64,000 nt of DNA from Halorussus rarus. GTDB taxonomy: Archaea > Halobacteriota > Halobacteria > Halobacteriales > Haladaptataceae. A program made the position numbers and the translations under genes. Below are positions 46,620 to 49,076 of the stretch, one piece after another; the first letter of the stretch is position 1, and each line of letters opens with the position of its first letter. The notes beneath the pieces are model-generated. The model saw only the letters and a list, made by a program, of their open reading frames with translations. It was not told where the DNA came from and made no database searches. The stretch covers positions 682,001 through 746,000 of the forward strand of contig NZ_QPMJ01000002.1 of NCBI RefSeq assembly GCF_003369835.1, written 5' to 3'.

Positions 46620-47558
46620 CTACGTTCCGGCCTCGCCGTTCGCGTGCGAGCGGACCCACAGCTCCCCGATGCGCGACAGTCGCGTCCGGTAGGACTTGCC
46701 GTGCTCCTCCTGCTCGATGTACCCCTTGCCGCCCGGCCCGAGCCGGTCGACGTTGTAGATGACCTTCGACCGGAAGCTGTCGGTGTACTCCTCGTCGAGT
46801 TCGCTGGCGAGCGCCTCCGCGAGCTCCGAGACCGACTCGAACTCGCCCTCCTCGCCGAGCTTGAACAGGATGACCTCCTCGAAGGGTTTGACGTTCGAGA
46901 ACGAGGCGACCGGGATCTCGGCGATGTGGCCGTCGCCGACCCGCTTGGCGCCGATGGTGGTGCCCCGCTCGTCGAACTCCGAGAGCAGTTCGCGGGCGCT
47001 GTCGAGGCGCTCGTCGATGCGGTCGCTACTCGCCTGCGCGGCCGGTTCGTCATCGGCGGAGTCGCCGGCTTCGGCGTCCTCCCGGAGGTCCTCGAGCAGG
47101 CCGGCCTGCCGGCGGAGCTCCTCGGCGAGTTCGGTCTCGAGGTACTTCTCCGGGGCGGTGTAGTAGGTGTGTATCTGCTCGCGGTCCTCCTCGCGCTCGA
47201 CCATCACCGAGTGGGCCGCGGTGGCGAACGCGAAGCTGACGGTCCGGGGCATCGCCGAGATGTTGACCCAGACCTCGCGGCCCGCGTCGAGTTCGTCGTT
47301 GATGAGGTGGTAGGCCTGCTCGAAGGCGGCGTCGTAGTCGTACACGTCATCGACCACGACGCGCTCGGTGGTCGCCCCTAGCAGGTTCCGGAAGTCCTGT
47401 TCGAGCTTCTGGGAGAGGTTCCGGGAGTACTCGACGTTGGCCTCGCTGCCGACCGCGCCCTCCAGCAGGATGACGCGGTCGACGTCCAGCTGGTCGCGCA
47501 CGAGGGGCGCGATGAGCCGGTCGTAGTCGAACCCGACCGGGACGATGTGGGTCTGCAT
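46620..47558 (-). CDS. HFX_2341-family transcription regulator (DUF6293)
   Basis: 312 residues from ATG 47558. The N-terminal 150 residues form a CARF-like Rossmann domain (HIVPVGFDYDRLIAPL, VWVNISAMPRTVSFA), and the C-terminal part carries a winged helix (GYIEQEEHGKSYRTRLSRIG). This family is conserved in haloarchaea. The CARF-like half may sense a nucleotide ligand. GGGGTTAAACCCC (47580-47592), 22 bases before the ATG, is a near-palindrome containing a TATA-like core and may be its own operator. Confidence 0.8.
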   Translation of the reverse strand: MQTHIVPVGFDYDRLIAPLVRDQLDVDRVILLEGAVGSEANVEYSRNLSQKLEQDFRNLLGATTERVVVDDVYDYDAAFEQAYHLINDELDAGREVWVNISAMPRTVSFAFATAAHSVMVEREEDREQIHTYYTAPEKYLETELAEELRRQAGLLEDLREDAEAGDSADDEPAAQASSDRIDERLDSARELLSEFDERGTTIGAKRVGDGHIAEIPVASFSNVKPFEEVILFKLGEEGEFESVSELAEALASELDEEYTDSFRSKVIYNVDRLGPGGKGYIEQEEHGKSYRTRLSRIGELWVRSHANGEAGT

Positions 47559-47728
47559 GTGGCTCCGTAGCGCCGAAGGGGGGTTAAACCCCAAGCTTTC
47601 GCTGTACTCCGCAAGCCATCAGGATGCGCCCTGTACCCGGCTACCGGTAGCGCCCGGTGAATCAGCCCACCGTCTGGGTGTCTGCACGAGCGAAGCGAGT
47701 GCAGGCTCGGAGGACGGGGTTGTCCTCC

Positions 47729-47859
47729 GGTGGACTGAAAGGGGCCGGCCGGCCGGTCGCGTCCGAAGGATTTGGTCGCCTCTGCAGGCCACTATTCGGC
47801 GAGCGTCAGCGAGCCGAATATCCTGCAGAGCGACCGGGACCGGCCGGGGGCTTTCGAGG
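47729..47859 (+). repeat. structured repeat element, copy A
   Basis: It begins GGTGGACTGAAAGGGG and ends GGGGGCTTTCGAGGA. Inside, CCGGCCGGTCGC pairs with GCGACCGGGACCGG, and a tip hairpin (CTCTGCAGG / CCTGCAGAG around ATTCGGC / GCCGAAT) tops the stem. Copy B at 48447-48572 has the same ends in the opposite orientation but an entirely different tip. No coding frame. GCACGAGCGAAGCGAGTGC, another hairpin, lies just upstream (47,685-47,703). Confidence 0.7.
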
Positions 47860-47958
47860 ACAACTCGGAGTCGACGCTCGCGCGATTCGGTAACGCGTTG
47901 AGAACACGCCGTCGGAGAACCGCCACCTTTACGCGCCGCTCCGTCACCCTTGGAACCG

Positions 47959-48408
47959 ATGAGTCTCCGGAGTGCGGTCGCCGCCCCGTTCCAGCAGAAG
48001 GGCACGGAGTCGATGGCCGAGAGCGAGTTCGTGGTCGCGCTGTCGCTGGACCGCGACTGGTTCTCGCCCGACCAGGCCGAGCGCCTCATCGACGTGGCCA
48101 GCGGGCAGGGGCTGCTCGTCCGCGAGGACGGCGACGTCGTGACGGCATTCGACCCGAGCGAAGTCGAGATTGCCGAGGGGTTCGTCCCCGACGAGTCCAT
48201 CCTCCAGGAGCAGTCGACCTTCGAGAAGCTGCTCGACAAGGTCGTCTCGGCCGGGACCGAGAAACAGACCGCGGTCGCCGAGATCAACGACCTCCAGAAC
48301 CGGCTCGGCGTGACCATCGAGGCCGCCGCGGTGGTGTACGCCCGGCGTCGGGGCGTCGAGGTCACCCGCGAGGCCGCCGAAGCGCGCGAGGAACTGAAGG
48401 CCGACTAG
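47959..48408 (+). CDS. DUF2240 family protein
   Basis: 149 residues from ATG 47959. SLRSAVAAPFQQKGTESMAE, then VVALSLDRDWFSPDQAERLI, is the DUF2240 pattern of archaea, a winged-helix-like fold of unknown role. The C-terminal half is a charged helical pair. It sits alone between the two inverted copies of the structured repeat. Confidence 0.8.
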   Translation: MSLRSAVAAPFQQKGTESMAESEFVVALSLDRDWFSPDQAERLIDVASGQGLLVREDGDVVTAFDPSEVEIAEGFVPDESILQEQSTFEKLLDKVVSAGTEKQTAVAEINDLQNRLGVTIEAAAVVYARRRGVEVTREAAEAREELKAD

Positions 48409-48446
48409 GCAAACAGGGAAGCGAGAAAACGAGGGGCTGTACTTTC

Positions 48447-48572
48447 TCGAAAGCCCCCGCCCGGTCGCGGTCGTTGCACGACATATCTGCGCCTCTCCGC
48501 ACCGCCCGGCGCAGATAGGGGTCGTGCAAGCGACCACGTGAACGCGACCGGGCTGCCCCTTTCAGTCCACCC
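48447..48572 (-). repeat. structured repeat element, copy B (inverted)
   Basis: Read on the minus strand it begins GGTGGACTGAAAGGGGC and ends GGGGGCTTTCGA, like copy A. The GCCCGGTCGCG / CGCGACCGGGC stem is kept, but the tip is TTGCACGAC / GTCGTGCAA with ATCTGCGCC / GGCGCAGAT. A conserved outline with different paired tips suggests a structure-dependent element. No gene lies in 48409-48689. Confidence 0.7.
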
Positions 48573-48689
48573 AAACGCCGGTTGTGTCACCGAGCGCATC
48601 CAGAGAGACTGGACAGGCAGTCCTCGATTCCGGAGATCTCCGCAACCCAAAGCCGAAGGCTGATTCGGATCCGCCGTCATTCTTGACGT

Positions 48690-49076
48690 ATGGTCGAGGA
48701 GCGAACCACCGACGGCAAGCGCATCGCTCAGTTGCTCTCCTCTGAGGTGTCGGGCCGCGAAGACTCCGGGCTCGACGCCCTCGACGTCGTCAACGCCGAC
48801 GCCGACGTAGAGCCGTCGGCCGACGGCGAGCTCGCCTACGAGATCGCCAGAAAGGACGGCGACTCAAACGAGTCAGAACTTCTCGCGGAGGTCTACGTCC
48901 AGGAGGACCGCGCCCGAATCGAGTTCCGGGAGGAAGTCGACGCTGCGGCGGAGGCCGCCGAGGAGGCAGACCTGCGCGTCCGACCGAAGGCGGTCCGTCC
49001 CCCGCGGACGCTGGTATTCGTCGAGGACGGCGCGGAGGTCAAGCGCGCGACCGACGTCCTCGTGGCGGTGCTGTAG
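48690..49076 (+). CDS. conserved-looking acidic protein (128 aa), unknown function
   Basis: I do not recognise the family. It is soluble, very acidic, with an N-terminal helical part (KRIAQLLSSEVSG) and a beta-rich middle (YEIAR, LLAEVYVQEDRARIEFRE), ending in TLVFVEDGAEVKRATDVLV. Codon use is that of the core genes. The following gene is convergent, 21 bases away. Confidence 0.7.
   Translation: MVEERTTDGKRIAQLLSSEVSGREDSGLDALDVVNADADVEPSADGELAYEIARKDGDSNESELLAEVYVQEDRARIEFREEVDAAAEAAEEADLRVRPKAVRPPRTLVFVEDGAEVKRATDVLVAVL

What the first reader, a model, noticed from the sequence alone, without database searches (positions are those of the whole stretch)
47729..48572. Structured repeats with equal ends and different tips bracket a DUF2240 gene
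Two elements of about 130 bases share ends (GGTGGACTGAAAGGGG, GGGGGCTTTCGAGGA), lie in opposite orientation and keep a G/C stem, but their tip hairpins are unrelated in sequence while both are well paired. That is the signature of selection on shape. They could be MITE-like, an RNA family or a chromosome-architecture element. The first 200 bases of the window contain a faintly similar GGGGCTTTCAAGA.
Basis: seen in the sequence. Interest (0 to 1): 0.6.

Follow-up and report, generated by a model that had tools for sequence, protein, structure and literature searches.

The report
Shape-conserved repeat hairpin of haloarchaea
The two mirror-image hairpins are copies of an apparently undescribed, non-coding repeat that is scattered through many salt-loving archaea, comes and goes in the gaps between genes, and keeps its folded shape while its letters change.

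Summary
Copies A (47733-47855, +) and B (48449-48567, -) belong to a dispersed intergenic family in a Halorussus genome (44 covariance-model hits). The family occurs in 17 of 18 congeners searched, 0 to at least 92 copies each, and in 133 of 293 genomes of the order. In a 294-genome phylum draw all 20 hits lie in that order. The fold is strongly supported: 97.5% of cells paired and 30 of 39 pairs changed on both sides, against 15.1 in shuffles. G.T mismatches outnumber A.C (114 to 42; 34 to 9 without the model), so one strand probably folds as RNA or single-stranded DNA. Copies turn over between species, nest inside each other, and often carry an upstream array of ~26-nt units. Two candidate mobilisers, Y1/RAYT transposase and reverse transcriptase, are absent from element-rich genomes. 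No Rfam family matches. Best reading: a non-autonomous mobile hairpin element, like Haloquadratum's short mobile repeats, held to a strand-specific shape by an unidentified factor. A functional RNA family remains possible. The DUF2240 gene between the copies looks incidental.

The parts
47733..47855 (+). Copy A: hairpin element, type I. P1 GAAAG/CTTTC (47737-47741 with 47851-47855), GGG/GGG internal loop, long stem P2, inner stem and tip
   Evidence: covariance-model hit 89.0 bits, E 3.5e-14 in own genome; fold z -4.55
48449..48567 (-). Copy B: same element, opposite orientation
   Evidence: covariance-model hit 116.2 bits, E 9.6e-20 in own genome; fold z -4.45 on its own strand
47681..47732 (+). 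Family-II double-hairpin insert (TCTGCACGAGCGAAGCGAGTGCAGG + CTCGGAGGAC..GTCCTCCGGTG) inserted between GGGTG and GACTG just upstream of copy A
   Evidence: read; the same insert at the same point in L007, L014 and L068
47650..47673 (+). Degenerate ~26-nt upstream unit of copy A (GCGCCCGGTGAATCAGCCCACCG)
   Evidence: read; unit class enriched upstream of elements on the same strand
48576..48601 (-). ~26-nt upstream unit of copy B (GGATGCGCTCGGTGACACAACCGGCG)
   Evidence: read
47959..48408 (+). DUF2240 gene lying between the two copies; not judged part of the element
   Evidence: PF09999, E 2.6e-52; gene call; neither element seen beside it in 10 of 17 congeners

Best explanation
Shown: this is a dispersed, non-coding, almost always intergenic repeat of Halobacteriales of about 105-125 nt. 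It has constant ends (GGGTGG[G]ACTGAAAGGGGC ... GGGGGCTTTC), a constant architecture (P1, GGG/GGG loop, P2, 5' bulge or small hairpin, inner stem, asymmetric loop before a variable tip) and freely covarying stem letters. Inferred: it is a non-autonomous mobile element. A factor encoded elsewhere recognises the folded + strand, as single-stranded DNA or possibly as transcript, by its foot and shape, and moves it into intergenic gaps or into other hairpins. Copies are gained and lost between species, and while active they are held to the shape that the factor needs, which gives compensatory changes. The ~26-nt upstream units would be accessory binding sites. The mover and the chemistry are unknown; Y1/RAYT transposase and reverse transcriptase are argued against by absence in element-rich genomes.
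For: Copy number 0 to at least 92 among congeners (at most 92 candidates scored per genome). Orthologous sites with gain or loss: in 800 kb of G006, 17 of 23 testable sites lack the element, 5 hold it in the same orientation and 1 in the opposite; in 360 kb of G009, 14 of 14 lack it. Nesting: 37 of 182 copies are 145 nt or longer, mostly by insertion of other hairpin families into the bulge, tip or right arm; at least 4 of the 37 are 3'-arm duplications. Fold: 30 of 39 pairs changed on both sides, 97.5% of cells paired, 0 of 500 shuffles as high; in unfitted alignment A1, 15 pairs against 7.3. Strand asymmetry: G.T 114 to A.C 42, 22 pairs to 8, 34 to 9 without the model, 11 to 3 in copies not picked by the left-arm pattern. 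No long, gene-carrying version: 183 of 199 left ends have their complementary right end within 260 nt. Co-amplification with an unrelated family IV (Spearman 0.79) fits a shared trans factor or host trait. Close pairs are inverted in 10 of 11 cases.
Against: No transposase or recombinase was identified, and no neighbour gene recurs apart from orthologous sites and broad families. No clean insertion edge or duplication was found: occupied gaps are longer than the element alone, and flank matches of 5 nt or more at a fixed offset are absent. Some sites persist in the same orientation although the surrounding intergenic sequence no longer aligns, more than a young parasite would show. Orientation leans towards the direction of the flanking genes (71 to 37), which also fits a transcribed function. 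In the 16 copies of A1 alone, G.U and A.C are about equal (6 to 5). Copies are related, so the probabilities are not literal.
Confidence: 0.5

Rival explanations
1. A functional structured RNA family (leader, trailer or processed sRNA) with many paralogues; the + strand is transcribed with neighbouring genes and binds a protein through the P1 / GGG-GGG / P2 foot.
For: Covariation; G.T over A.C on the + strand; co-orientation with flanking genes, 71 to 37; retention in the same orientation at some orthologous sites; pyrimidine-rich tail after the hairpin (T 28-32% at +10 to +30).
Against: Complete absence in congener G009 and a single copy in G014; 17 of 23 and 14 of 14 orthologous sites empty; no TATA-like or AT-rich stretch in the 300 nt upstream; ordinary, varied neighbour genes; no Rfam match.
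Confidence: 0.25
2. Classical MITE moved by a DDE transposase that recognises the inverted ends, with covariation as a by-product.
For: Inverted ends, high copy number, intergenic insertion, nesting.
Against: No target-site duplication of 5 nt or more at a fixed offset in 171 copies; no longer element with the same ends; the stems, not only the tips, vary with compensation, unlike homogeneous MITE families.
Confidence: 0.1
3. Covariation is mutational: quasi-palindrome correction (template switching) rewrites one arm from the other, without selection on shape.
For: One Haloarcula copy (L253) has its internal loop turned into a perfect palindrome, so such correction does occur.
Against: The GGG/GGG loop, the 5' bulge and the CTAT/ATAT loop stay unpaired in nearly all copies; correction alone should erase them. 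It also predicts no G.T over A.C asymmetry.
Confidence: 0.08
4. REP/REPIN element of an IS200-like RAYT (Y1) transposase.
For: Short hairpin, inverted pairs, single-strand asymmetry.
Against: PF01797 absent in 8 of 18 Halorussus genomes, including element-rich G000, G001, G002, G003, G010 and G011; Spearman with copy number 0.17, p 0.50.
Confidence: 0.04
5. Chromosome-architecture or partition site.
For: Dispersal over the chromosome; tandem ~26-nt units beside a hairpin look like protein-binding arrays.
Against: Absent in a congener (G009); both orientations are mixed along 800 kb of G006, so there is no replichore polarity there; quick turnover.
Confidence: 0.03

Closest known systems
Short mobile repeats (SMR-A) of Haloquadratum walsbyi (PMC3119063, passages read)
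   Same: About 110 bp, inverted ends, no target duplication, tens of copies, preference for inserting into palindromes of other elements, unknown mobiliser
   Different: SMR types are reported as commonly >95% identical within a type; here stems covary between copies, the family spans an order, and there is an upstream ~26-nt array.
REP/REPIN elements with RAYT (recalled)
   Same: Intergenic imperfect hairpins, inverted pairs, strand-specific structure
   Different: No Y1/RAYT gene in six element-rich genomes; stems freely covarying
PATEs / IS605-type near-terminal palindromes (PMC3119063)
   Same: Haloarchaeal, palindromic, transposase-free
   Different: PATEs lack terminal inverted repeats and derive from IS605-type transposons; here the whole element is one hairpin and no IS200/IS605 link was found
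Rickettsia palindromic elements and Allomyces mitochondrial double-hairpin elements (recalled, not looked up)
   Same: Mobile hairpins whose shape outlasts their sequence
   Different: Unrelated organisms; no sequence comparison made
Integron attC sites (recalled)
   Same: Constant ends, variable but paired tip, unpaired spacer near the foot
   Different: No integrase search was made; copies are dispersed in both orientations, not cassette arrays

Membership tests
Any Rfam 15 family | Score at or above gathering threshold | tested here: not met
   E-value scan of window 47300-48900: best hit on copy A 18.1 bits against a threshold of 100; 11 loci, 0 hits at gathering threshold
REP/REPIN-RAYT | Y1 (PF01797) transposase in the genome | tested here: not met
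   0 in 8 of 18 genomes, including element-rich G000, G001, G002, G003, G010, G011
REP/REPIN-RAYT | Inverted pairs of hairpins | tested here: met
   10 of 11 pairs closer than 1 kb are inverted
MITE | Target-site duplication | tested here: not met
   No fixed-offset match of 5 nt or more in 171 copies; variable edges could hide a duplication
MITE | Ends shared with an autonomous transposon | tested here: not met
   183 of 199 left ends close within 260 nt, 5 weak far matches, 11 none; limited to fetched loci
SMR-A (Haloquadratum) | ~110 bp, inverted ends, no target duplication | tested here: met
   Length peak 105-124 nt
SMR-A (Haloquadratum) | High sequence identity within a type (>95%) | tested here: not met
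   43 distinct P2 left arms among 187 copies
SMR-A (Haloquadratum) | Sequence homology to HqIRS42/43/55 | not testable with these tools
Retro-element (SINE-like) | Reverse transcriptase available in the genome | tested here: not met
   PF00078: 0 of 18 Halorussus genomes
Structured RNA family | Covariation of the fold | tested here: met
Structured RNA family | Transcription of the folded strand | not testable with these tools
   No RNA-seq available; only the G.T over A.C asymmetry bears on it

The most novel reading that the evidence does not exclude
Halobacteriales carry a mobile element that is selected as a folded single strand: its identity lies in shape (a G-rich GGG/GGG foot loop between two covarying stems, plus a ~26-nt unit array), not in sequence. 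It is propagated by an undiscovered trans-acting system that also supports a second, unrelated hairpin family and whose loss empties a genome of both, as in Halorussus G009.
Probability: 0.3. Interest if true: 0.82.

Novelty: new variant of a known kind. Interest (0 to 1): 0.62.

Why it matters
It would put a strongly covarying, order-wide repeat family on the map of archaeal genomes, where hairpin repeats with no known mobiliser (SMRs) were left as an open puzzle in 2011. The 0-to-90 copy range inside one genus, with several genomes lacking both Y1 transposase and reverse transcriptase, makes the search for the mobiliser directly testable. It also warns that covariation alone does not prove a conserved RNA gene.

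Tried and rejected
Autonomous parent: left ends with complementary right ends 0.3-6 kb away gave only 5 weak cases of 199. Recurrent neighbour gene: 342 neighbours in 259 clusters; the largest clusters are orthologous sites or broad families. Haloarcula plasmid lead: single copies lie ~480-500 nt from a 'SOSS complex subunit B' gene, but relatives of that protein do not track copy number (none at E 0.001 in the element-rich own genome, two in element-free G009). Y1 transposase and reverse transcriptase: see rivals. Phages and IMG/VR: no match (the IMG/VR scan used one exact degenerate pattern). Three bacterial contigs in the genome-contig scan (L175, L196, L197) gave no model match, so they were taken as chance. 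Papers: the motif string GACTGAAAGGGGC is in no held paper; searches found no description in their listings except the SMR/PATE paper, whose passages I read. One search used a flank by mistake (it matched an aminotransferase gene) and is not used.

Full report
OBSERVATION. Window 47729-48572 holds two hairpins in opposite orientation with the same ends. Both fold much better than dinucleotide shuffles on either strand (z -4.45 to -5.99). A 16-nt end pattern hits that genome 54 times against 20 for the reversed control.

FAMILY. Sixteen uninterrupted own-genome copies were aligned and made into a covariance model, R1. R1 finds 44 places in the own genome at E 0.001 or better. It finds 27 of 40 relatives and 17 of 18 genus members; counts run from 0 (G009) and 1 (G014) to 92 in G002 and G016, which is the scoring limit. 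In the order 133 of 293 genomes match, with at most 12 scored per genome. Among 294 genomes drawn from the phylum 20 match, all of them in the window's own order. Copies occur on Haloarcula, Haladaptatus, Halorussus and Halovenus plasmids, and none in the phage collection.

ANATOMY. Reading the + strand: GGGTGG[G]ACT, P1 GAAAG/CTTTC, an unpaired GGG/GGG, P2 of 13 pairs, a 5' bulge that is either about 7-9 nt or a small hairpin, an inner stem, an asymmetric loop (CNCTAT / ATAT), and a variable paired tip. Other inner modules can sit between the same ends: a second type (GACGACGCAAGCACCGCAGG...) or simple hairpins. Of 169 copies, 73 have one or more degenerate ~26-nt units (CGGTGACAC core) within 200 nt upstream on the same strand, 130 units in all, against 8 on the reverse strand, 5 downstream on the same strand and 0 downstream on the reverse strand. 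In G006 these are clear tandem arrays directly abutting the foot. Copy A of the window carries another family's double hairpin inserted exactly between GGGTG and GACTG; the same insertion point is used in L007, L014 and L068.

SELECTION ON SHAPE. In the unfitted MAFFT alignment of 16 copies, 15 of 39 pairs have a change on both sides (shuffled mean 7.3) and 96.5% of cells pair. In 84 distinct copies fitted to R1, 30 pairs have such changes (shuffled mean 15.1) and 97.5% of cells pair; no shuffle or slid control comes near. The fitted set leans towards the structure. In P2, read without the model, 187 copies show 43 different left arms and 2334 of 2431 cells are Watson-Crick. The unpaired loops stay unpaired, which argues against pure arm-to-arm correction; one Haloarcula copy (L253) shows that such correction can happen.

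STRAND. With no strand preference G.T and A.C mismatches should be equally common. They are 114 and 42 in 180 fitted copies (22 pairs favour G.T and 8 A.C), 34 and 9 in P2 without the model, and 11 and 3 in the 82 copies not selected by the left-arm pattern. In the 16 copies of A1 alone they are about equal (6 and 5). Copies are related, so I take this as moderate evidence that the + strand folds as a single strand, RNA or DNA.

TURNOVER AND PERSISTENCE. With 800 kb of G006 as reference, 23 element sites of other genomes could be placed: 17 empty, 5 with an element in the same orientation, 1 opposite; that one and one of the five come from the same locus. In 360 kb of G009, 14 of 14 were empty. 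Against a rough guess of 3% of gaps occupied, sharing is still more than chance. At shared sites the coding flanks align at about 66-95% while intergenic flanks often do not, and stems and tips differ between species. At the window locus, among 17 congeners, site A is occupied in 6 (one a remnant), site B in 2, both only in G016. Of 175 copies, 163 could be placed between called genes, 11 lay at locus edges and 1 overlapped a called gene; orientations were 71 with both neighbours, 37 against both, 23 between convergent and 32 between divergent genes.

MOBILISER. Y1 transposase is absent in six element-rich genomes and reverse transcriptase in all 18. The SOSS-like protein found beside the Haloarcula plasmid copies does not track copy number. 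No fixed-offset target duplication was found. The counts of an unrelated dispersed family IV (GGCTGGGGAGG) rise and fall with this family over 18 genomes (Spearman 0.79, p 8.5e-5); phylogeny is not corrected for, the counts include some background, and in the own genome the family-IV pattern is at control level (12 against 11).

MECHANISM. Most likely a non-autonomous mobile hairpin recognised by shape on one strand by an unknown factor (0.5). Dispersal, turnover, nesting and the fold are shown; recognition of the folded strand and the existence of a common factor are inferred. A functional RNA family is the main rival (0.25).

KNOWN KINDS. It behaves like the Haloquadratum SMR-A repeats (PMC3119063, passages) but is not shown to be one: within-family identity is far lower, and the SMR sequences could not be compared. 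It is not a current REP/RAYT system in the element-rich genomes named above, and no Rfam family matches. The passages of PMC2841640 that hold 'repeat' or 'palindrom' describe no such repeat in Haloferax volcanii. Novelty: new variant of a known kind.

Noticed in passing
L293-L312, L333-L352 (G006:C1:1-800000): A second dispersed structured family (IV): GCGCGAGGGATGACTGAGCGA..GGAATCGGCTGGGGAGGCGTGTGGCC..TAGGTACCGGGAGTAGCTAGC, roughly 30 or more copies in 800 kb, often as close inverted pairs, and absent in G009.
   Followed up: partly
L263 1376-1613; L367 235-520: Neighbouring inverted copies with different inner modules share the same P2 arms, including the same G.T or T.G mismatch, as if one outer arm set had been copied.
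   Followed up: no
L253 4003-4111: A Haloarcula plasmid copy in which the conserved asymmetric loop has become a perfect palindrome.
   Followed up: no
L251 6500-6606; L252 4500-4603; L254 4497-4598: A separate long hairpin (ACGGAAAGACAC..GTGTCTTTCCGT and variants) in the leader of the SOSS-B-like gene on Haloarcula plasmids.
   Followed up: no
window 47730-47745 and element copies generally: GGGTGGG, GGGG and GGGGG tracts meet at the foot of the hairpin; in high intracellular KCl they might form G-tetrads (sequence reading only).
   Followed up: no
L019, L059, L212, L369: A third insert family (GTGGTTCGAAAGAGCGAAGCTCTTTCGTCATC..GACAAC) nested in the element.
   Followed up: no
L143, L167, L238, L247: A second copy of the 3' arm and GGGGGCTTTC lies some 60-90 nt downstream of the first.
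   Followed up: no
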